Positions 52,095-64,000 of a DNA stretch of 64,000 bases are shown here, piece after piece. Under the pieces are notes generated by a model that searched no databases, was not told the DNA's origin, and saw nothing but the letters and a program-made list of their open reading frames with translations. A program made the position numbers and the translations under genes. The first letter of the stretch is position 1. Every line of letters begins with the position of its first letter. The stretch comes from Carbonactinospora thermoautotrophica (GTDB lineage: Bacteria > Actinomycetota > Actinomycetes > Streptomycetales > Carbonactinosporaceae), in NCBI RefSeq assembly GCF_001543895.1, contig NZ_JYIJ01000010.1, positions 124,001-188,000 of the forward strand, read 5' to 3'.

Positions 52095-52606
52095 GGGCCT
52101 GGTACGCCGCTGTTGCAGGCGGCGATGACCGTTCGGTGCGCCGGACCAGACAGCTTCAGGTCCTGGCGGTGCACGTTGTCGCGCAGAGCCAAGAAGGTGG
52201 CACTGAGCGACAAGCTTCCAGCCGTGGGCTTTCGCATGATGTCGGTCACCAATTGACCGTCGACTCCGCGAAGTGTCGCGGTACGAGGAGGTCTAATGCC
52301 TCGACGATTCTGGGGGCGAGAATCACGAGCCGTGCGATGGCCAGCAGTGTCTTCCCTTGAAAACGTGAACGAAGACGTGAACACCGTCGTCTTTGCGTAG
52401 CCGCACGGTTCAAGGACCGCGAGGAAGCCACCAGGGCTTCACGTTTGGACCACTCGTTGGTTGCTGTCGCTGAAGTACCTCATGAAGTGGTCCCGGGTGT
52501 ACCGCGGGCACCTGTAGATCTACGCGCAGATGATCTGGGGGAAGGCAGGTGCCGTTCGCGTCCTGCCGCCAGGTTTCGGTCCTTCCAAGAACCACCACGA
52601 CCGCAC
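52095..52606. other. 512-bp region upstream of the amidase leader
   Basis: No intact gene. A minus-strand frame (52246-52431) ends with LLAIARLVILAPRIVEALDL, faintly like a recombinase C-terminal segment, but is too short to call. There is a perfect 10-bp palindrome GTAGATCTAC at 52514-52523 and a direct repeat of ACGTGAAC near 52363-52382. The promoter of the amidase operon probably lies here, but no convincing -35/-10 pair is visible. Confidence 0.5.
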
Positions 52607-52677: not shown

Positions 52678-52690
52678 AAGGAGAATCTCG

Positions 52691-54241
52691 ATGGGTGTCG
52701 ACCCGCCTACCATCGCCGATCTCGCCGAGATCGCGCGGCACTATGAATTCCACCTCGGGGAATCCGATCTGGAGTCGTACCGCGCCCTGGTCACCGGCGC
52801 GCTCGAGTCTTACCGGATCGTCGAGCAGCTCTTCCAGGACACGCTGCCGGAACCACCGTCCGGACGTACCTACCAGCGGCCGCAACCAGAGCAGAATCCG
52901 CTGGGTGCGTGGTACGTGACCACCCGAATATCCACGGGGAAGGAAGGCCCGCTGACCGGCCGCACTGTGGCGGTCAAGGACAACGTCGCAGTGGCCGGGA
53001 TCCCGATGATGAACGGGTCGCGGTCGGTCGAGGGGTTCGTGCCGCGCCGGGACGCGACAGTGGTGACCCGACTGCTTGAGGCGGGTGCGACGGTAGTCGG
53101 CAAGGCGGTCTGCGAAGACCTGTGTTTCTCCGGCGCCAGCCACACCGCGGCTACCGGGCCGGTCCGCAACCCATGGGACCCCAACGTCACGGCCGGTGGG
53201 TCGTCCTCCGGCAGCGCCGTGCTGGTCGCCACCGGGGAAGCGGATCTCGCCGTGGGCGGCGACCAGGGCGGGTCGATCCGCATCCCCAGTGCGTTCTGCG
53301 GAGTCGTCGGACACAAGCCGACCCGAGGCCTGGTGCCCTACACCGGGGCGTTCCCCATCGAGAACACGCTGGACCACCTCGGTCCGATCACCTTCACCAC
53401 CCGCGACGCCGCGCTGATGCTCGGGGTGATGGCCGGCCCGGACGGCCTGGACCCGCGGCAGCGGGACCTGCCCCCGGCCAAGGACTACCTTGCCGACCTC
53501 GACGCCGGGATCAGTGGGCTGCGGGTGGCCGTGGTCGAGGAGGGTTTCGGTCTGCCAGGACTGTCGGACCCGCAAGTCGACGAGGAGGTGCTCGCCGCTA
53601 CCCGCAGATTGGAGCGCGCGGGCGCGAAGGTGAGCCACGTCAGCATTCCGTGGCACCGACACGGCGTGCACGTGTGGAACGTGATCGCTATCGAGGGCGC
53701 GACAACGCAGATGGTGGACGGCAACGGGTTCGGCATGAACTGGTCCGGTTACTACGACCCGGAACTCATCGCGCACTACGCCCAAGGCCGACGGGACCAT
53801 GCCGACAGCTTGTCCGACACCGTGAAGCTCACCGTGCTAGCCGGCCGATACACGATCAACCGATACGGCGGCCGTTACTACGGGATGGCGCAGAACCTGG
53901 CCCGGTCGCTCACTGCCGCGTACGACGCGGTGCTGGCGGAGTTCGACGTGCTGGTGATGCCCACGCTGCCCTACGTCGCTACGCCCATCGAGGATGCCTT
54001 GTCGTGCCGGGAGAATTACGTCGCCCGAGCGCTGGAGATGATCGTGAACACCGCGCCGTTCGACGTGACCGGCCACCCGGCGACAACGGTTCCGGCCGGC
54101 ATGGTCAAAAACCTGCCCGTCGGCATGATGATCATCGGACGACACTTCCAAGATGACGTGTGTCTCCGGGTAGCCCAGGCGTACGAGACAGCCGTCGGCG
54201 GGTTCACGCCACCACCCGGTTCCGCCCGGCGCGCCAGTTGA
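52691..54241 (+). CDS. Amidase (amidase-signature family, nitrile-hydratase-associated)
   Basis: Hydrolyses amides to carboxylic acids and ammonia, completing nitrile breakdown after nitrile hydratase. The Ser-cisSer-Lys triad is intact at the positions known for Rhodococcus amidase: Lys96 (GRTVAVKDNVA), Ser171 (TAGGSSSGSA) and the nucleophile Ser195 (GGDQGGSIRIPS). An N-terminal extension of about 75 residues is typical of this enantioselective-amidase subgroup. Length is 516 aa. ATG with AAGGAG ahead. First gene of the island, 41 bp ahead of the beta subunit gene. Confidence 0.94.
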   Translation: MGVDPPTIADLAEIARHYEFHLGESDLESYRALVTGALESYRIVEQLFQDTLPEPPSGRTYQRPQPEQNPLGAWYVTTRISTGKEGPLTGRTVAVKDNVAVAGIPMMNGSRSVEGFVPRRDATVVTRLLEAGATVVGKAVCEDLCFSGASHTAATGPVRNPWDPNVTAGGSSSGSAVLVATGEADLAVGGDQGGSIRIPSAFCGVVGHKPTRGLVPYTGAFPIENTLDHLGPITFTTRDAALMLGVMAGPDGLDPRQRDLPPAKDYLADLDAGISGLRVAVVEEGFGLPGLSDPQVDEEVLAATRRLERAGAKVSHVSIPWHRHGVHVWNVIAIEGATTQMVDGNGFGMNWSGYYDPELIAHYAQGRRDHADSLSDTVKLTVLAGRYTINRYGGRYYGMAQNLARSLTAAYDAVLAEFDVLVMPTLPYVATPIEDALSCRENYVARALEMIVNTAPFDVTGHPATTVPAGMVKNLPVGMMIIGRHFQDDVCLRVAQAYETAVGGFTPPPGSARRAS

Positions 54242-54282
54242 AAGTGCTCGGCACAGAACTTCGATCCTCCAGGAGGTACGCA

Positions 54283-54963
54283 GTGAACGGTGTCCACGAT
54301 TTGGGCGGCACCGACGGGCTCGGCACCATCGGCCCGGAGGAAAACGAACCCGTCTTCCACTCCGAGTGGGAGAAGGTGGTGTTCGCGCTGCTGCCGGCGA
54401 CGTTCGCGGCCGGGTACTACAACCTCGACCAGTTCCGGCACGGCATCGAGCAGATGCACCCGGTGGAGTACCTGTCCTCCCGGTACTACGAGCACTGGCT
54501 GCACACCATCACCCACCACGCCATTCGGGTCGGCGCCATCGATCCGGACGAGCTCGATGAGCGCACTCGGTACTACCGTGACAACCCGGACGCGCCGTTG
54601 CCTGACAGGCGGAACCCCGAGCTGCTCAAGCTAATGGAAACCATCGTGGCGCAAGGCAGCTCGGCTCGGCGACCGCTTGACTCCAAGCCGCGCTTCTCGA
54701 TCGGTGACCGGGTGCGGGTCGCCGACGATCACCCGTTTGGTCACACCCGCCGGGCTCGCTACATCCGCGGCAAGGTCGGCGTGATCGACCGCGTGCACGG
54801 CACGTTCATCTACCCCGACACCGCGGCGCGTGGCGAGGGAGACGACCCGCAGTGGGTCTACAGCGTGCGGTTCGACGCCAAGGAGCTGTGGGGCGAACAG
54901 TACGCCGATGCCAACGGATCGGTCTATTTCGACGTCTGGGAACCCTACATCGACCGCGTGTGA
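54283..54963 (+). CDS. nthB: Nitrile hydratase subunit beta
   Basis: Structural partner of the alpha subunit that shapes the active-site channel. It has the typical N-terminus MNGVHDLGGTDGLGTI, the central HWLHTITHHAI / GAIDPDEL region, and the C-terminal SH3-like barrel (FSIGDRVRVADDHPFGHTRRARYIRGKVGVIDRVHGTFIYPD). Length is 226 aa. GTG start with AGGAGG seven bases ahead. The order beta-alpha is that of cobalt-type enzymes such as those of R. rhodochrous J1. Confidence 0.95.
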   Translation: MNGVHDLGGTDGLGTIGPEENEPVFHSEWEKVVFALLPATFAAGYYNLDQFRHGIEQMHPVEYLSSRYYEHWLHTITHHAIRVGAIDPDELDERTRYYRDNPDAPLPDRRNPELLKLMETIVAQGSSARRPLDSKPRFSIGDRVRVADDHPFGHTRRARYIRGKVGVIDRVHGTFIYPDTAARGEGDDPQWVYSVRFDAKELWGEQYADANGSVYFDVWEPYIDRV

Positions 54964-54993: not shown

Positions 54994-55629
54994 ATGAGCA
55001 CTAGCCAGAGTCCGCCCCCGATCAGCGAGTCGTTCCCGAAGTCGGAGGAGGAGATCGCCGCTCGGGTGAAAGCGCTTGAATCGCTGCTGATTGAGAAGGG
55101 CGTGCTCACCACTGAGGTCGTCGACCGAATCGCGGAGATCTATGAGCACGAGGTCGGCCCCCACCTCGGCGCCAAGGTCGTCGCCAGGGCATGGGTGGAT
55201 CCGGAGTTCAAGAAGCGGCTGCTGGCCGACGCCTCGGCGGCGTGCCGAGAGCTTCATATCGGCGGACTGCAGGGTGAGGACATGGTCGTCGTGGAGAACA
55301 CCGACAGCGTGCACAACGTCGTCGTGTGCACGCTGTGCTCCTGCTACCCGTGGCCGGTGCTGGGGCTGCCGCCGAATTGGTACAAGTACCCGGCCTACCG
55401 GGCGCGGATCGTGCGCGAGCCGCGCACCGTGCTGCGTGAGGAGTTCGGCCTCGACCTGCCCGAGTCGGTGGAGATCAGAGTATGGGACAGCAGCGCTGAG
55501 TTGCGCTACTGGGTGCTCCCGCAGCGTCCTGCAGGCACCGAGCACCTCTCCGAGGAGCAGCTCGCGGCGCTGGTCACCCGCGACTCGATGATCGGCGTCG
55601 GCCTGCCGCGCAGCCCCCAGGAAGGATGA
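54994..55629 (+). CDS. nthA: Nitrile hydratase subunit alpha, cobalt type
   Basis: Metal-binding subunit that hydrates nitriles to amides. The metal loop is [21 protein letters not shown], with Cys112, Cys115 and Cys117; in the family the last two are oxidised to sulfinic and sulfenic acids. Thr at 113 (CTLCSC) is the signature of non-corrin cobalt enzymes, whereas iron enzymes have Ser. Length is 211 aa. The stop overlaps the accessory gene start (ATGA). Confidence 0.96.
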
Positions 55630-56081
55630 AGGCGATGACCTCAACGGCTCGTGATGTACGGCAGCGCTTCTTGCAGGACGTGAGCCAGGACAGGGCGAAG
55701 GTGGAGCAGCTGCTCGACCAGTTGCCCGAGGGCGCGGCGATTCCCAAGAAGTGCGGAGAGGCGTCGTTCGACAAGGCGTGGGAGATTCGGGCGTTCGCCC
55801 TGGCAGTCGCCGCGCACCAGGTAGGCCAGTACGAGTGGTCTGAGTTTCAGCGGGAGCTGATCGGCGCGATCTCGCGGTGGGAGAGCACCGCCGCGGACCA
55901 GCCCTGGCGGTACTACGACCGATGGCTGGAGGCGCTTGAGTCGCTGCTGGCCGCATCCGGGCTGGTCACCAAGTCCGAACTGGACGATCGAACCCGCAAG
56001 GTGCTCGCGACCCCGCGCGACACGAGCCACCAGCATGCACGCCGTGATCCGGTGGCCGTCGACAGCGGCAACCACGCCTGA
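55626..56081 (+). CDS. Nitrile hydratase accessory protein (beta-homologue/P14K-type activator)
   Basis: Protein of 151 aa resembling the N-terminal half of nitrile hydratase beta ([43 protein letters not shown]...[19 protein letters not shown]). In the family such proteins (P14K, NhlE) act as self-subunit-swapping chaperones that insert cobalt into alpha. It is translationally coupled to alpha by an ATGA overlap; ATG 55635 is an alternative. The cysteine in PKKCGE is a candidate metal-handling residue (inference). Confidence 0.9.
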
Positions 56082-56086
56082 GACCC

Positions 56087-56122
56087 GGGCCGGACGCGAC
56101 GAGGACAGGTCGCGTCCGGCCC
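56087..56122 (+). terminator. Strong hairpin between the accessory gene and nhlF
   Basis: Perfect 14-bp stem GGGCCGGACGCGAC / GTCGCGTCCGGCCC with loop gaggacag, six bases after the accessory-gene stop. It probably terminates or attenuates, so the cobalt transporter is made at a lower level or from its own promoter. Confidence 0.75.
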
Positions 56123-56187: not shown

Positions 56188-57363
56188 ATGCACCACATCC
56201 GTCCGACGGGCCACGCTGGCACCGCAGGCAGGACCGGAAGCGCCGGCTCGGGCCGGTGGCGGCGGGTCCGGGACAGTCTCGACGCCCGGGAGTGGCGGTC
56301 GCTCGGCGTGATGTTCGGCGTCATCGCCCTGCTGCACGTGATCGGGTTCGGCCTGCTCATGCTCGCCCTCCGGGGGAACCACCGGATCGACGCCACGACC
56401 ACGCTCGGCATCGGTACTGGTGTGCTGGCCTACACGTTGGGTATGCGGCACGCGTTCGACGCCGACCACATTGCCGCGATCGACAACACAACGCGCAAGC
56501 TCATAAGCGAGGGCAAGCGCCCGCTTAGCGCGGGTTTCTTCTTCGCCATGGGGCATTCCTCGGTCGCCGTGGCGCTGGTCGTCTTATTGAGCTTCGGCGT
56601 CAAGGCCTTGGCCAGTGCGGTGGTCAACGACGGCTCGGCGCTGCACCACTATGCGAGTCTCATCGGCACCACCGCCTCGGCGGTGTTCCTGCTGTTGATC
56701 GCCGCGCTCAACCTGGTCGTGCTCTGCTCGATCATCACGGTGTTCGTCACCATGCGTCGCAGCGACGGACACTGCGACGAGGAGTACCTGGAGGAGCAGC
56801 TGGCCAAGCGCGGGCTCATGACCCGGTTCTTCGGTTCGCTGACGCGTTCGATGGACTCCAGCTGGAAGATGTATCCGCTGGGTCTGCTGTTCGGACTCGG
56901 CTTCGAGACTGCCACCGAGGTGGCCATGCTGATCCTCGCTGGCACCGCATTCAGCGGCGGGCTGCCGTTTTGGGCGGTACTCAGCATGCCGATCCTGTTC
57001 ACCGCTGGCATGAGCCTGTTCGACACGCTGGACGGCGTGTTCATGAACTTCGCCTACGAGTGGGCGTTCGCGAAGCCGGTGCGCAAGATCTACTACAACA
57101 TCACGATCACCGGCCTGTCCGTCGCCGTCGCCGTGTTCGTCGGCGGGATCGAGGTCGCCCAGCTGACGAAGGAGCAGCTGGGACTCGTCGGCGGTCTGTG
57201 GGACTACGTCGCGGACTTCGACATCAACCGGGCGGGGTACGTCATCGTCGGCCTGTTCGTCGCGGTGTGGATTCTCGCCCTTGCGATCTGGAAATTCGGT
57301 CGGGTGGAGCAACGCTGGGAGACGACCCAGCAGTCCCGGTCTGGAGCGGTCGCTGACGCCTGA
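56188..57363 (+). CDS. nhlF: Cobalt/nickel transporter NhlF (NiCoT family)
   Basis: Cytoplasmic-membrane permease with about eight helices (391 aa). The NiCoT signature RHAFDADHIAAIDNTTRK (HAxDADH) is in helix II, followed by FFFAMGHSSVA and GLGFETATEV. In R. rhodochrous J1, NhlF supplies cobalt to nitrile hydratase, and the same role is expected here given the cobalt-type alpha subunit. ATG 56188. Confidence 0.94.
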   Translation: MHHIRPTGHAGTAGRTGSAGSGRWRRVRDSLDAREWRSLGVMFGVIALLHVIGFGLLMLALRGNHRIDATTTLGIGTGVLAYTLGMRHAFDADHIAAIDNTTRKLISEGKRPLSAGFFFAMGHSSVAVALVVLLSFGVKALASAVVNDGSALHHYASLIGTTASAVFLLLIAALNLVVLCSIITVFVTMRRSDGHCDEEYLEEQLAKRGLMTRFFGSLTRSMDSSWKMYPLGLLFGLGFETATEVAMLILAGTAFSGGLPFWAVLSMPILFTAGMSLFDTLDGVFMNFAYEWAFAKPVRKIYYNITITGLSVAVAVFVGGIEVAQLTKEQLGLVGGLWDYVADFDINRAGYVIVGLFVAVWILALAIWKFGRVEQRWETTQQSRSGAVADA

Positions 57364-57398
57364 ATAGGCACGTGCGTCGCGGAATGGTAAACACGTTA

Positions 57399-57427
57399 TT
57401 GCTACATGACATGTTGTCGCATGCTAT
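57399..57427 (+). promoter_or_regulatory. Promoter and candidate operator of the ArsR-type gene
   Basis: TTGCTA (57399-57404), a 17-bp spacer and TGCTAT (57422-57427), ten bases before the GTG start, so nearly leaderless. The spacer contains the perfect palindrome ACATG-A-CATGT (57404-57414) and the motif GACATGTTG (57408-57416), related to GACATATTG at 59266. Such a position fits autorepression. Confidence 0.5.
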
Positions 57428-57436
57428 GGGGGCACC

Positions 57437-57808
57437 GTGGCTGCTGACCTGGTGTTCGGCGCATTGGCCGATCCGGTGCGCCGGGAGATCCTGACCATCC
57501 TCGCCGAGCACGACGAGTGCAGCGCTGGCGAGGTCGCCAAGCGCGTCAGGAGCGTCGGACGCAGCGCGGTGTCCACCCACCTGAAGGTGCTGAAGCTGGC
57601 CGGTCTGGTGGTCGAGCGCAAGGAGGGCCGCTTCCGCTACTACTCCTTGGACAGCGCGGGTCCTGTGCGAGAGGTGCTGGGCTTCTTGCACGACCTCTTT
57701 CAGACCTCGCTCGACGACCTGAAGAGCTCGGCGGAGGCCAGGACCCGCGCACGGAAGGCCGACACACATGGACATCACGAGAGTGACGAATCCCGCCGGG
57801 TGTCCTGA
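57437..57808 (+). CDS. ArsR-family winged-helix regulator
   Basis: Small DNA-binding protein (123 aa): FGALADPVRREILTILAEHDECSAGEVAKRV and the recognition helix RSAVSTHLKVLKLAGLVVERKEGRFRYYSLD. It has only one cysteine and no metal-binding box of the SmtB/CadC type, so metal sensing is not indicated. It resembles the subgroup of ArsR proteins encoded next to SRPBCC (AHSA1) proteins. Its stop overlaps the start of exactly such a gene (TGATG). The C-terminal tail is His/Asp/Glu-rich (DTHGHHESDE), of unclear meaning. Confidence 0.88.
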   Translation: MAADLVFGALADPVRREILTILAEHDECSAGEVAKRVRSVGRSAVSTHLKVLKLAGLVVERKEGRFRYYSLDSAGPVREVLGFLHDLFQTSLDDLKSSAEARTRARKADTHGHHESDESRRVS

Positions 57809-59262
57809 TGGGCTCCATCGTCCTGACCGCTGAGCAGACCATCCAGGCATCACCCCAGGATGTTTTCAACATGTTCGGCGCCGGGCCGGGCCACGGCTGG
57901 GTGTTCGACGCACAGTGCGACGTCCTGGCCGTCGGCGCGGTCGTCACGCTACGGGTCCCGCTGCTCGGCGCCAGTAACTCCGGTTCGGTCGACATCCTCG
58001 GCCGGATCGTCGCGCTGCGGCCTGGCAGGCAGATCGTCATCGCACACGACCTGCCGTGGAGGGGCAGGCTGCGGTGCCTGTTCGAGCCGGACGGCCCGTG
58101 CAGTACCCGCGTCCGGCTCGTGGCCGATCTCGACGGGCAGGGGCTGGAGTGGCTGCTGCGCCGCCACGGCTGGCCGGTCCGCGACGAACCGACCACCGAC
58201 TCCCATCGGGTGGGGTTACTGACCAGCAAGTCCGGCCCGGGCAGCGTGTTCGCCACAGCCAGCGAATACCTGGCCCGAATGGCGATCGACGAGATCAACT
58301 CCGACGGTGGGATCCACGGCCGGCCGGTGGAGCTCATGGTCGCCGACGACGCTACCGATCCCGCCGTGGGTGCGAGCGAGGCCCGCCGGTTGGCACGCGC
58401 CGGCTGCCGCGCGATCCTGGCCAGCGTCACCTCCGCGACGTTCGCCCGCGCTGAACATGCCCTGCGCCGTGCCGGGGTGCTGCTCATACACACGGTGCTG
58501 AACGAGGGGGGCCGCGGGGACAACTGGTTGTTCCGGCTCGGCGAGCGGCCGCTCAACCAGCTGACCGCCGCAGTCCCACTGATGATGCGCGAAACCGGAG
58601 CCCGGCGCTGGTTCCTGATCGGCAACGACTACAGCTGGTCACACGGCGCCCACTACTGGGGCAAGCTGGTCATCGCCCGGCACAGAGGAGTCGTGGTGGG
58701 CGAGCGGTACACCCCGCTGGGCACCACGAACTTCGCCTCGCTGGTGGAGGAGATCGCGAGGTCCGGGGCCGAGTTGGTGCTGTCCAGCCTGGTCGGCGCG
58801 GACGAGGTCGCGTTCGAGCGCGAGTTCTACCGGGCCGGCCTGCGGGACACCTGCCGCACCCTGGCGCTGGTGCTCGATGAGTCGACTCGCGAGCGTATCG
58901 GTGATCCTGCCGCGACGGGGCTGTGGACGGCGTTCGGCTACTTCCAGCAACTACCGACATCGGCAAACGAGGCGTTCCTCACTCGGTACCGGCGCAGGTT
59001 CGGCCGGTGGGCACCGCCGGTGTCCAGCCTGACCGAGTCGGTCTATGAAGCAGTGCATCTCTACGCCGCCGCCGCGCGAGCGGCTCGCGAGGACACGCCG
59101 CCGGTGGTAGCCGAGTCGCTGCGCCACCTGAGCCTGATGGTGCCTCGCGGTGAGGTGTCGCTCTCCGGTCCGGTGGACTTCCGCCAACCGCTCTTTGTCG
59201 CCGAGGCGGTGCCCGGCGGTTACCGCTTCCTCACTGAATCACCCGCCGACATGTTAGTATGA
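57808..59262 (+). CDS. SRPBCC domain fused to an AmiC-like ligand-binding domain
   Basis: Unusual 484-aa fusion. Residues 1-128 form an SRPBCC/START-like domain (AEQTIQASPQDVFNMFGAGP...VGAVVTLRVPLLG...GRIVALRPGRQIVIAHDL). From about 133, a type 1 periplasmic-binding fold of the AmiC/branched-chain amino acid group follows (SHRVGLLTSKSGPGSVFATA, INSDGGIHGRPVELMVADDA, GTTNFASLVEEIARSGAELV). There is no signal peptide, so it is cytoplasmic. AmiC and NhhC bind amides and control amidase or nitrile hydratase synthesis; an amide-sensing role here, working through the coupled ArsR protein, is inferred. Confidence 0.82.
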   Translation: MGSIVLTAEQTIQASPQDVFNMFGAGPGHGWVFDAQCDVLAVGAVVTLRVPLLGASNSGSVDILGRIVALRPGRQIVIAHDLPWRGRLRCLFEPDGPCSTRVRLVADLDGQGLEWLLRRHGWPVRDEPTTDSHRVGLLTSKSGPGSVFATASEYLARMAIDEINSDGGIHGRPVELMVADDATDPAVGASEARRLARAGCRAILASVTSATFARAEHALRRAGVLLIHTVLNEGGRGDNWLFRLGERPLNQLTAAVPLMMRETGARRWFLIGNDYSWSHGAHYWGKLVIARHRGVVVGERYTPLGTTNFASLVEEIARSGAELVLSSLVGADEVAFEREFYRAGLRDTCRTLALVLDESTRERIGDPAATGLWTAFGYFQQLPTSANEAFLTRYRRRFGRWAPPVSSLTESVYEAVHLYAAAARAAREDTPPVVAESLRHLSLMVPRGEVSLSGPVDFRQPLFVAEAVPGGYRFLTESPADMLV

Positions 59263-59263
59263 C

Positions 59264-59291
59264 GCGACATATTGACATATCAATATGTCGC
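59264..59291. promoter_or_regulatory. Perfect 12-bp inverted repeat over the araC-type promoter
   Basis: The arms GCGACATATTGA (59264-59275) and TCAATATGTCGC (59280-59291) flank CATA. The centre supplies TTGACA (59272-59277), a consensus -35; CATAGC or ATAGCG follows 16-17 bp later. A repressor bound here would block the AraC-type gene. A further GACATGTTA lies at 59248. As RNA it could also form a hairpin, but it lacks a following T-run. Confidence 0.6.
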
Positions 59292-59358
59292 GCCATAGCG
59301 TTGCTTGGGTCACGACCGTGCCGGCGCAGGCTCCCACCGGGAAGGGGGTCAACCATCA

Positions 59359-60324
59359 ATGAATCCGGTACACGCCGACCAACCGCGGGCGCTCAAGTTG
59401 GCTCAAGCAAGCACGGTGGGAATGCGGCGAGACATCCAGGACAAATTCGTTGCCTTGGAGATCGCGCCACAGGGCGACGCGAGGTTCACTGGCGAGGTGT
59501 GGAGCGCGCGCTTCGGACACCTGCTAGCGGCGGAGATGTCCGCGGTGCCACAGTCCTTCCCCCGTACGGCCAAGCTCGTGTCCCGGGCCACCGAGGAGTG
59601 CTTCCAGGTAGGGCTCGTCGCCCGTGGATTCGCGCACGTGGTCCAAGATGGTCAGGAGTGCCGCCTGGCCGAGGGGGACTTCGTCGTTCACGAGGCCGGC
59701 CGACCGTTGTTCTGGAAACTGGACGGCGACTGGAAGCTGCTCGTGTTCACGTGGCCACGCGAGGCAATCGCGCTGGACCACGCCCAGCCCCAGCGGGTAA
59801 CCGCCCGGGTATTCCGCGGCAGCACGGGGCTGAACCGAATCATCGCGAACGTGCTTACCGCCCTCGCCATGACCCGACCGAACGTCCAGACATCCAATGT
59901 GGCCCGCCTAGCCGAGCAGGTCGGTACCCTCGTCGTCACCGCGGCGCTCGAACAGTGCGTTGATGAGGCGCCGGAACCGGAACAGCCGTCGGATCTGTTT
60001 CGAGCCGTTCAGGAGTACATCGAGGACAACCTCGACGACCCCCACCTGGATCCGGAGAGCATTGCGCGTGCCTTCTTTATCTCCACGCGCACCCTCCACC
60101 GGCTCTTCGCCCGGCAAGGGCAGACCGTCTCCCGATGGATCAGAACGCGGCGGCTGGAGAAAGCCCGGCGCAAACTGACCTCCCGCGAGGCGCGGGACCG
60201 ATCCATTACGGAGATCATGATCGACTGTGGGTTCTCTGATCTCGCGCTGTTCAGCCGAGCCTTCCGGGCAGAGTACGGCCTCAGCCCTCGCGAGTATCGC
60301 GCACGCCATGCCTTCACCGCTTGA
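59359..60324 (+). CDS. AraC-family transcriptional activator (NitR-like context)
   Basis: Protein of 321 aa. It has an N-terminal AraC_binding_2 domain (VGLVARGFAHVVQDGQECRLAEGDFVVHEAGRPL) and a C-terminal double HTH (DPESIARAFFISTRTLHRLFARQG...ITEIMIDCGFSDLALFSRAFRAEYGLSPREYR). AraC-type activators control nitrilase (NitR) and amide genes in Rhodococcus. Here it is the last gene of the nitrile/amide island and probably activates the amidase operon (inference). ATG 59359 has GGGAAGGGGG somewhat far upstream; no closer RBS is evident. Confidence 0.87.
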   Translation: MNPVHADQPRALKLAQASTVGMRRDIQDKFVALEIAPQGDARFTGEVWSARFGHLLAAEMSAVPQSFPRTAKLVSRATEECFQVGLVARGFAHVVQDGQECRLAEGDFVVHEAGRPLFWKLDGDWKLLVFTWPREAIALDHAQPQRVTARVFRGSTGLNRIIANVLTALAMTRPNVQTSNVARLAEQVGTLVVTAALEQCVDEAPEPEQPSDLFRAVQEYIEDNLDDPHLDPESIARAFFISTRTLHRLFARQGQTVSRWIRTRRLEKARRKLTSREARDRSITEIMIDCGFSDLALFSRAFRAEYGLSPREYRARHAFTA

Positions 60325-62793: not shown

Positions 62794-64000
62794 TTATCTG
62801 GGTGGGTGGCCGCGCCGGCGGTAGTGGCAGCTTCGGGCCTGGTGTTGGCGTCGTCGGCGTCAGCGTGACCAGGCGATTACCTGGTTGTTGGGGTGTAGGG
62901 GTGTCAGGAGCAGGGCGGTCAGGAGCCTGCGGATTTCGGGCACGGTGAGCGGGATCAGCTCACTGTCGCGGGGATCCTCGCCCCCTTTGCGGCGTTGGCG
63001 CGCGCGACGGTCAACCACGCGTGGGCCAGCATGGACAAGGTGATGTGGGCGTACCAGGCGCGGTAGTGGCGGGCCTGGTCGTGGTCCAGGCCGGCGTCGG
63101 TCTTGGCTTGGTGGAAGCATTCTTCGGTCGCCCAGCGGGTGCCGGCCACCCGGGCCAGTTCGGTCAGGGTGGCGTGGCGGGGCCCGGAGCAGACGTAGTA
63201 GGCGATCTCGGTGGGGTCGGCGATGGAGCGGCGGGCGAGCAGCCAGTGGCCGCGGCCGGGCCGCCAGGCGATGCGGATCGGGACGCGGGCCCAGTCGTAC
63301 CGGCGCGGGCCGTGGGCGCCGTCTGCGCAGGACAGTCGCCGCCAGGCCCGGGCGGGTAGGGCGGCGACGAGCTCGTCGGCCCGCCCAAAGCCGTGCCCCG
63401 GGGCGAGGACGTCGTTGTTGCGCCGAGTGGCCAGCACATACGCCAGATCGTGTTCTTCCAGCCACACCCGCGGGTACTTCACCTGGCCGTAGGTTTCGTC
63501 CGCGGTGACCCACGCGAACGGGATCTTCGCGTCCACGGCTCGGGCCAGTATCGCCATGGCCAGCCGCGGCTTGGTGGCGAACTCGATCTCCTCGGGAATG
63601 CCGGCATCCCGGCAGCGGTCACGGTCAACCGTCCACGACTCCGGCAGGTACAGCTCCCGGCAGGTACAGCTCCCGGTCGATGAGGGTGTGGCCGTGACGG
63701 GAGGCGTAGGCGAGGAAGACACCCACCTGGCAGTTCTCAGTCCGCCCCGCGGTGCCGGAGTACTGCCGCTGTACTCCCGCCGAGCGGGTGCCCTTCTTCA
63801 CAAACCCGGTGTCATCGACGATCAGTACCGCCCCGGTGTCGCCAAGGTGTTCGACGAGGTGTCCCGCAGGTCGTCGTGGACCCCGTCAACGTCCCACTCG
63901 GCCTTGCGTAACAGCCGCTGTATCCCGTCCGGGCAGCGCTCGCCCGCGTGTTCAGCCAGTGTCTACCCGTTCTTGCGCTCCAGACCGGCTGTCAGCCCAC
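62794..64000 (-). pseudogene. Decayed IS701/IS4-type transposase, continues past the right edge
   Basis: DDE transposase readable only by joining frames. From the right edge: GLERKNG then TAG for Trp (63963-63965); a one-base loss near 63858-63865 before [20 protein letters not shown] (first catalytic Asp); a 16-bp tandem duplication (63645-63676) after DRELYLP; the body with IPFAWVTADETYG and GTRWATEECFHQAK (catalytic-region Glu); a shift at a G5 run near 62985; the tail LIPLTVPEIRRLL; then TGA for Trp at 62860-62862, ending with TAA at 62794. Five lesions show long inactivity. Terminal inverted repeats were not identified. Confidence 0.85.
63645..63676. repeat. 16-bp perfect tandem duplication in the transposase remnant
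   Basis: CAGGTACAGCTCCCGG occurs twice back to back (63645-63660 and 63661-63676). One copy encodes RELYLP of the transposase; the extra 16 bp shift the frame. Confidence 0.9.

What the first reader, a model, noticed from the sequence alone, without database searches (positions are those of the whole stretch)
57437..59262. ArsR repressor coupled to a cytoplasmic SRPBCC / AmiC-like fusion: a candidate new amide-sensing switch
Seen: an ArsR-type gene overlaps (TGATG) a gene whose product joins an SRPBCC domain (residues 1-128) to a type 1 periplasmic-binding fold (about 133-484) with no signal peptide. Established: AmiC and NhhC are amide-binding regulators of this fold; ArsR genes are often paired with stand-alone SRPBCC genes. 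Inference: the fusion merges the two logics. Amide binding would change SRPBCC contact with ArsR and relieve repression of the nitrile/amide island. I do not know a described protein with this architecture.
Basis: partly seen in the sequence, partly recalled or inferred. Interest (0 to 1): 0.8.

Follow-up and report, generated by a model that had tools for sequence, protein, structure and literature searches.

The report
Amide-sensing partner for ArsR repressor
A bacterial repressor gene is locked to a neighbour that fuses a small lipid-pocket-type domain to an amide-sensor-like domain; the pair recurs beside nitrile- and amide-degrading genes across actinobacteria and is very probably the same regulator (NhlD/NhlC) known genetically from the industrial strain Rhodococcus rhodochrous J1, with a domain make-up and a DNA target site I have not found described.

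Summary
ArsR (57437-57808) overlaps (TGATG) a 484-aa fusion (57808-59262): an SRPBCC-fold domain (about 1-120; every listed structural match is SRPBCC) plus an AmiC/UrtA-like domain (133-484), with no signal peptide. It is not an assembly error: 12 further loci carry the full-length fusion (38-54% identity), always directly behind ArsR; 11 of the 13 have amidase nearby and 5 have nitrile hydratase (NHase).

The "new switch" reading is only partly right. The cluster in R. rhodochrous BAA-870, whose NHase is identical to J1 L-NHase, is ArsR-fusion-nthB-nthA-accessory-Co/Ni transporter-amidase, the order I recall for J1 nhlDCBAEF-amdA. The pair is therefore probably NhlD/NhlC, studied in 1996 (from memory: NhlD repressor, NhlC amide-dependent antirepressor).

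What looks new: (1) NhlC-type proteins carry an N-terminal SRPBCC domain that goes with an ArsR partner (NhhC lacks it; MarR partner); (2) a conserved 22-bp operator, tATGTCAAtanntaTTGACATa, found de novo, also predicting sites before NHase/amidase operons not used in training; (3) here the only strong site precedes an AraC-type gene, not the NHase operon, suggesting a cascade. Ligand, ArsR contact and DNA binding are inferred.

The parts
57437..57808 (+). ArsR-type repressor (NhlD-like), GTG start, 123 aa; no conserved metal-binding cysteines in the family
   Evidence: Pfam HTH_20 E 2.6e-12; alignment of 12 orthologues
57808..59262 (+). Fusion sensor protein (NhlC-like), 484 aa, ATG overlapping the ArsR stop (TGATG)
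57808..58167 (+). N-terminal SRPBCC-fold domain (residues 1-120)
   Evidence: model pLDDT 80; all 50 listed PDB matches are SRPBCC, Z up to 10.3
58204..59259 (+). Type 1 periplasmic-binding fold, AmiC/UrtA-like sensor domain (residues 133-484)
   Evidence: Peripla_BP_6 E 2.9e-72; Z 39.5 to 8tg1 and 39.2 to AmiC 1pea
59258..59279 (+). Best operator match TATGACGCGACATATTGACATA; overlaps the fusion stop codon and carries a TTGACA -35-like hexamer
   Evidence: rank 1 of the 64 kb window with a matrix trained without it, 18.6 bits against a maximum of 6.6 in 1-50000; only 0-mismatch match in 5.13 Mb
59258..59297 (.). Inverted repeat containing the operator (18-nt arms, 94% complementary, 4-nt spacer)
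57392..57413 (+). Weak operator-like site upstream of ArsR (possible autoregulation)
   Evidence: 12.9 bits in the joint model, 8.2 when the window is left out of training
59359..60324 (+). AraC-type regulator (FeaR/NitR-like), 321 aa from the ATG; the gene directly behind the strong operator
   Evidence: HTH_18 E 3.6e-23 and AraC_binding_2; a 32% identical Rhodococcus relative lies directly behind a carbon-nitrogen hydrolase gene
52691..54241 (+). Amidase
   Evidence: PF01425 E 2.9e-92; PRK07235 1.3e-229
54160..54963 (+). NHase beta subunit (listed start overlaps the amidase; the true start is probably later)
   Evidence: TIGR03888 E 3e-81
54994..55629 (+). NHase alpha subunit
   Evidence: TIGR01323 E 5e-94
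55626..56081 (+). NHase accessory protein (activator)
   Evidence: TIGR03889 E 4e-19
56188..57363 (+). Nickel/cobalt transporter (NhlF-like)
   Evidence: PF03824 E 1.9e-93; TIGR00802

Best explanation
An NhlD/NhlC-type, product-induced regulatory pair. ArsR (NhlD-like) represses promoters by binding the palindrome tATGTCAAtanntaTTGACATa, which overlaps the -35 region. The cytoplasmic fusion (NhlC-like) binds an amide, or a related small carbonyl-nitrogen compound, in its AmiC/UrtA-like domain. Closure of that domain is relayed to its N-terminal SRPBCC domain, which docks on ArsR and removes it from DNA. In Rhodococcus and Paenarthrobacter the operator sits directly before the amidase/NHase genes. 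In this window it sits before the AraC/NitR-like gene, so the most likely circuit is a cascade: amide, fusion, ArsR off, AraC activator made, amidase-NHase operon on. Shown by computation: domains, conserved linkage, operator motif. Inferred: ligand, SRPBCC-ArsR contact, direction of effect (antirepressor), binding of ArsR to the motif, the AraC step.
For: ArsR adjacent to the fusion in 13/13 loci and amidase near 11/13. BAA-870/BX2 gene order ArsR-fusion-nthB-nthA-accessory-NixA-amidase, with the BAA-870 NHase identical to J1 L-NHase, whose cluster paper title states induction by the reaction product (PMC6983157). De novo operator LLR 166 against 36+-3 (maximum 42.5) in shuffles; leave-one-out recovers it in most loci; sites absent from training lie before amdA-nthBA in Paenarthrobacter (28 bits), before nthB in Rhodococcus (16) and before the amidase-NHase operon in R. 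pyridinivorans (26); no strong site in the NhhC/NhhD cluster (best 8.6). The ArsR family lacks conserved cysteines, so metal sensing is unlikely. Sensor domain Z 39 to AmiC. The NhhC-type protein without the SRPBCC domain is paired with MarR instead.
Against: No binding or expression data. The sensor domain is as close to urea-binding UrtA as to AmiC. Two loci (L004, L038) have no amidase within about 9 kb. BAA-870 carries the pair yet its NHase is reported constitutive (PMC6941271). The J1 regulator sequences themselves were not available; the identification with NhlD/NhlC rests on synteny and on the identical NHase, plus my memory of the 1996 gene order and genetics.
Confidence: 0.68

Rival explanations
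1. AmiC logic reversed: the unliganded fusion is a corepressor that holds ArsR on DNA through the SRPBCC domain, and the amide dissolves the complex.
For: AmiC is a negative regulator that releases AmiR on amide binding (established knowledge; AmiC matches at Z 39). Obligate linkage of the two genes fits either direction.
Against: As I recall the J1 genetics, NhlC counteracts NhlD rather than assisting it. ArsR proteins usually bind DNA unaided.
Confidence: 0.17
2. The SRPBCC domain is itself a second sensor (for a hydrophobic nitrile, acid or acyl compound), so the protein integrates two ligands, or the domain only aids folding or dimerisation and the AmiC-like domain contacts ArsR.
For: SRPBCC folds commonly bind hydrophobic ligands (established). 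The domain has invariant residues W31, P83, W84 and R66. It is less conserved than the sensor domain in most orthologues (30-53% against 42-58%).
Against: The domain is present in all ArsR-paired members and absent in the MarR-paired NhhC type, which suggests a link to the ArsR partner.
Confidence: 0.25
3. The natural ligand is urea or another UrtA-type solute, and the link to nitrile genes is secondary.
For: The best structural and sequence match is a urea-binding protein. Acidimicrobiia loci and L039 carry a branched-chain/urea-type ABC transporter beside the pair.
Against: Those same loci also carry an amidase. Fusion-linked operators precede amidase and NHase genes in several genera. The pocket segment IHTVxNEGG differs from UrtA (LFYPVQYEG) and from AmiC (LCYPTPYEG).
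Confidence: 0.15

Closest known systems
NhlD/NhlC of Rhodococcus rhodochrous J1 (L-NHase cluster, Komeda et al. 1996, J Biol Chem 271:15796)
   Same: ArsR-type plus AmiC-like gene pair beside Co-NHase, accessory protein, Co/Ni transporter and amidase; the BAA-870 homologue (51% identical) sits with an NHase identical to J1 L-NHase
   Different: The window's gene order is rearranged (amidase-NHase upstream) and its strong operator precedes an AraC gene. I could not read the paper, so whether it noted the N-terminal domain is unknown to me
NhhC/NhhD (H-NHase cluster)
   Same: AmiC-like cytoplasmic sensor beside Co-NHase; about 34% identity over the sensor domain
   Different: No SRPBCC domain (361 aa), MarR-type partner, and no strong copy of the ArsR-linked operator in that locus
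AmiC (Pseudomonas aeruginosa amidase operon)
   Same: Same fold (Z 39.2, 24% identity), cytoplasmic amide sensor
   Different: Partner is the antiterminator AmiR; no SRPBCC domain; several aligned pocket residues differ
UrtA urea-binding proteins
   Same: Best sequence and structure match of the sensor domain (8tg1, Z 39.5)
   Different: Secreted ABC-transporter components; the fusion has no signal peptide and no own transporter in most loci
SRPBCC / AHSA1 domains
   Same: Fold of residues 1-120
   Different: Sequence below Pfam cut-offs; shortened C-terminal helix; fused to a sensor domain

Membership tests
NhlD/NhlC regulatory pair | ArsR-type gene directly followed by an AmiC-like gene without signal peptide | tested here: met
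NhlD/NhlC regulatory pair | Linkage to Co-NHase beta-alpha-accessory, Co/Ni transporter and amidase | tested here: met
   window; Rhodococcus
NhlD/NhlC regulatory pair | Same full-length architecture as J1 NhlC | tested here: inconclusive
   J1 sequence not held; the syntenic BAA-870/BX2 protein has the full architecture at 51% identity, and the BAA-870 NHase is identical to J1's
NhlD/NhlC regulatory pair | Amide-dependent derepression | not testable with these tools
   needs expression or binding assays
AmiC family | Type 1 periplasmic-binding fold of the AmiC/UrtA branch | tested here: met
   Z 39.2 to 1pea, 24% identity
AmiC family | AmiR (ANTAR) partner | tested here: not met
   Partner gene is ArsR in every locus
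SRPBCC superfamily | Helix-grip fold of residues 1-120 | tested here: met
   all listed matches are SRPBCC, Z 8.7-10.3; the C-terminal helix is short
SRPBCC superfamily | Sequence match above a Pfam gathering score | tested here: not met
   none for the window protein; AHSA1 21.4 bits against a cut-off of 22.1 in the Nonomuraea orthologue
ArsR/SmtB metalloregulators | Winged-helix ArsR DNA-binding domain | tested here: met
   NF033788 74.8 bits against a cut-off of 55; HTH_20, HTH_5
ArsR/SmtB metalloregulators | Conserved metal-ligand cysteines | tested here: not met
   no conserved Cys column in 12 orthologues

The most novel reading that the evidence does not exclude
The SRPBCC domain is a dedicated coupling module that turned an AmiC/UrtA-type sensor into an allosteric remover of ArsR: a modular way of giving a metal-free ArsR repressor a new chemical input. 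In this genome the module has been rewired to drive an AraC activator rather than the NHase operon itself.
Probability: 0.4. Interest if true: 0.65.

Novelty: new variant of a known kind. Interest (0 to 1): 0.5.

Why it matters
L-NHase of R. rhodochrous J1 and its relatives are industrial catalysts for acrylamide and nicotinamide. How their regulator senses the product has, as far as I could find, no structural explanation. A defined two-domain sensor, a repressor without conserved metal ligands and an explicit 22-bp operator turn this into a small set of direct tests, and could supply an amide-responsive biosensor part. It would also give ArsR proteins a protein-partner mode of induction instead of metal binding.

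Tried and rejected
Assembly error or chance join: rejected (12 further full-length homologues). Metal-sensing ArsR: judged unlikely (no conserved Cys). Secreted transporter component: rejected (no signal peptide; SRPBCC domain at the N-terminus). Operator before the amidase-NHase operon of the window: none convincing (best 9.0 bits at 52684, overlapping the amidase start codon). Riboswitch or other known RNA in 50-62 kb: none. Stand-alone SRPBCC next to ArsR in the same genome: none in seven loci. A whole-model fold search left the N-domain untested, so it was folded and searched alone (then 84, 90-91). Plasmid-derived proteins were not accepted for folding, so the models use nine sequences from the window and other loci. 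Literature: Komeda 1996 (JBC and PNAS) not held; no held paper names NhlC together with nitrile hydratase.

Full report
OBSERVATION. Pfam finds HTH_20/HTH_5 in ArsR and Peripla_BP_6 at residues 134-453 of the fusion (E 2.9e-72), and nothing in residues 1-130 of the window protein. In the Nonomuraea orthologue the N-terminal part scores just under the cut-off for AHSA1 (21.4 against 22.1 bits) and more weakly for Polyketide_cyc2.

STRUCTURE. AlphaFold2 on nine orthologues gives mean pLDDT 85.4, pTM 0.85 for the whole protein. The sensor domain (about 133-484) matches urea-binding 8tg1 (Z 39.5) and AmiC 1pea (Z 39.2) equally well. Folded alone, the N-domain (pLDDT 80, strand-helix-five strands-helix) matches only SRPBCC proteins in the listed top 50: Aha1, START, PR-10 and cyclases, best Z 10.3 at 3.3-3.9 A over 104-107 residues.

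NOT AN ARTEFACT, AND NOT UNIQUE. Full-length homologues occur in Nonomuraea (54%), Pseudonocardia, three near-identical Acidimicrobiia bins, three unnamed Actinomycetota genomes, Paenarthrobacter aurescens TC1 pTC2, and Rhodococcus rhodochrous and R. pyridinivorans plasmids. Of 1,763 plasmid records that match at all, only 8 cover at least 80% of the query; all 8 are Rhodococcus or Paenarthrobacter. The N-domain is rare: 3 of 396 sampled genomes of the phylum and 2 of 395 of the class, own genome included; one of the three is a weak partial match. In all 13 loci an ArsR gene ends within about 40 bp of the fusion start. Amidase is near 11 of 13, NHase near 5. In Nonomuraea the fusion is followed by an amidase and an amine oxidase; in Acidimicrobiia and one other genome by, or opposite, a branched-chain/urea-type ABC transporter with an amidase.

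IDENTITY. In R. rhodochrous BX2 and ATCC BAA-870 the order is ArsR, fusion, nthB, nthA, accessory, Ni/Co transporter, amidase. The BAA-870 NHase is stated to be identical in sequence to the J1 low-molecular-mass NHase, with Komeda et al. 1996 cited, whose title says the enzyme is 'induced by its reaction product' (PMC6983157). From memory, that J1 cluster is nhlD-nhlC-nhlB-nhlA-nhlE-nhlF-amdA, with NhlD ArsR/MerR-like and repressing, and NhlC AmiC-like and relieving repression with amide. The paper is not held, so this step is recall plus synteny. On that basis the pair is most likely NhlD/NhlC and the genetic switch is not new. By contrast the H-NHase-type locus has a 361-aa AmiC-like protein without the N-domain and a MarR partner. 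The N-domain therefore goes with ArsR, which is the main evidence that it couples the sensor to ArsR; it is a correlation over few cases.

OPERATOR. Expectation-maximisation on the 120 bp before arsR and the 180 bp around the fusion stop from these loci finds a palindrome, tATGTCAAtanntaTTGACATa, with log-likelihood 166 against 35.9 +- 2.8 (maximum 42.5) in dinucleotide shuffles. Training without each locus in turn recovers a strong site in all loci but L039. Sites that were never in the training set lie before amdA-nthB-nthA in Paenarthrobacter (L027:4410, 28 bits), before nthB in Rhodococcus (L028:14214, 16 bits) and before the amidase-NHase operon of R. pyridinivorans (L030:16963, 26 bits). 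The NhhC/NhhD control locus has nothing above 8.6. At several sites the right arm is a TTGACA -35-like hexamer. The ArsR recognition region (GRTAVSSHLRVLR) is conserved while no cysteine is. Caveat: sites before arsR are weak in the window, L003 and L039, and L004, L028, L030 and L039 have no site just behind the fusion. That ArsR binds this palindrome is inferred from its position and conservation.

WINDOW-SPECIFIC WIRING. With the matrix trained without it, the best of 64,000 positions is 59258-59279 (18.6 bits; the maximum in 1-50000 is 6.6), between the fusion and the AraC-type gene, inside an inverted repeat with 18-nt arms. It is the only zero-mismatch match to the core pattern in the 5.13-Mb genome. 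The site before arsR is weak (8.2-12.9 bits) and the amidase-NHase operon has none convincing (9.0 bits at best). The AraC protein is FeaR/NitR-like; a 32% identical relative on Rhodococcus pNit lies directly behind a carbon-nitrogen hydrolase gene, and nitrilase clusters with an AraC-family NitR are described (PMC8955678). Hence the proposed cascade amide, fusion, ArsR, AraC, NHase operon; the last step is inference.

CAVEATS. No ligand, binding or expression data exist here. BAA-870, which carries the pair, is reported to express its NHase constitutively (PMC6941271); the paper attributes this to loss of regulation. Urea cannot be excluded as ligand. The direction of the fusion's effect rests on recalled J1 genetics.

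VERDICT. A real, conserved protein architecture; most likely a member of the NhlD/NhlC kind with a newly recognised SRPBCC domain, a newly derived operator, and a variant target in this genome.

Noticed in passing
L029:4747-5112 with site L029:5131-5152: R. pyridinivorans p_4-4_B carries a second, solo ArsR paralogue next to the NHase genes with a near-ideal copy of the same operator (28 bits) before it; a further site (20 bits) lies before the acyl-CoA ligase upstream of nthB.
   Followed up: partly
L005-L007:10530 onward; L039:7224-8537: The pair sits beside a secreted binding protein about 39% identical to the fusion's sensor domain, with ABC transporter genes and an amidase: the cytoplasmic sensor looks like a recruited copy of a transporter component.
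   Followed up: partly
L003:10488-15389: Nonomuraea: fusion followed by amidase, amine oxidase (PF01593) and a 500-aa protein with no Pfam match; resembles an amino-acid monooxygenase/amidase route to acids through an amide.
   Followed up: no
56087-56122: Perfect 14-bp inverted repeat (GGGCCGGACGCGAC, 8-nt loop) between the NHase accessory gene and the Co/Ni transporter gene, possibly a terminator or processing site.
   Followed up: no
52363-52382: Direct repeat ACGTGAAC-gaag-ACGTGAAC about 310 bp before the amidase start; could be an activator site, could be chance.
   Followed up: no
62955-63722: Transposase-like reading frame near the contig end, about 2.6 kb behind the AraC gene; the nitrile island may be mobile.
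   Followed up: no
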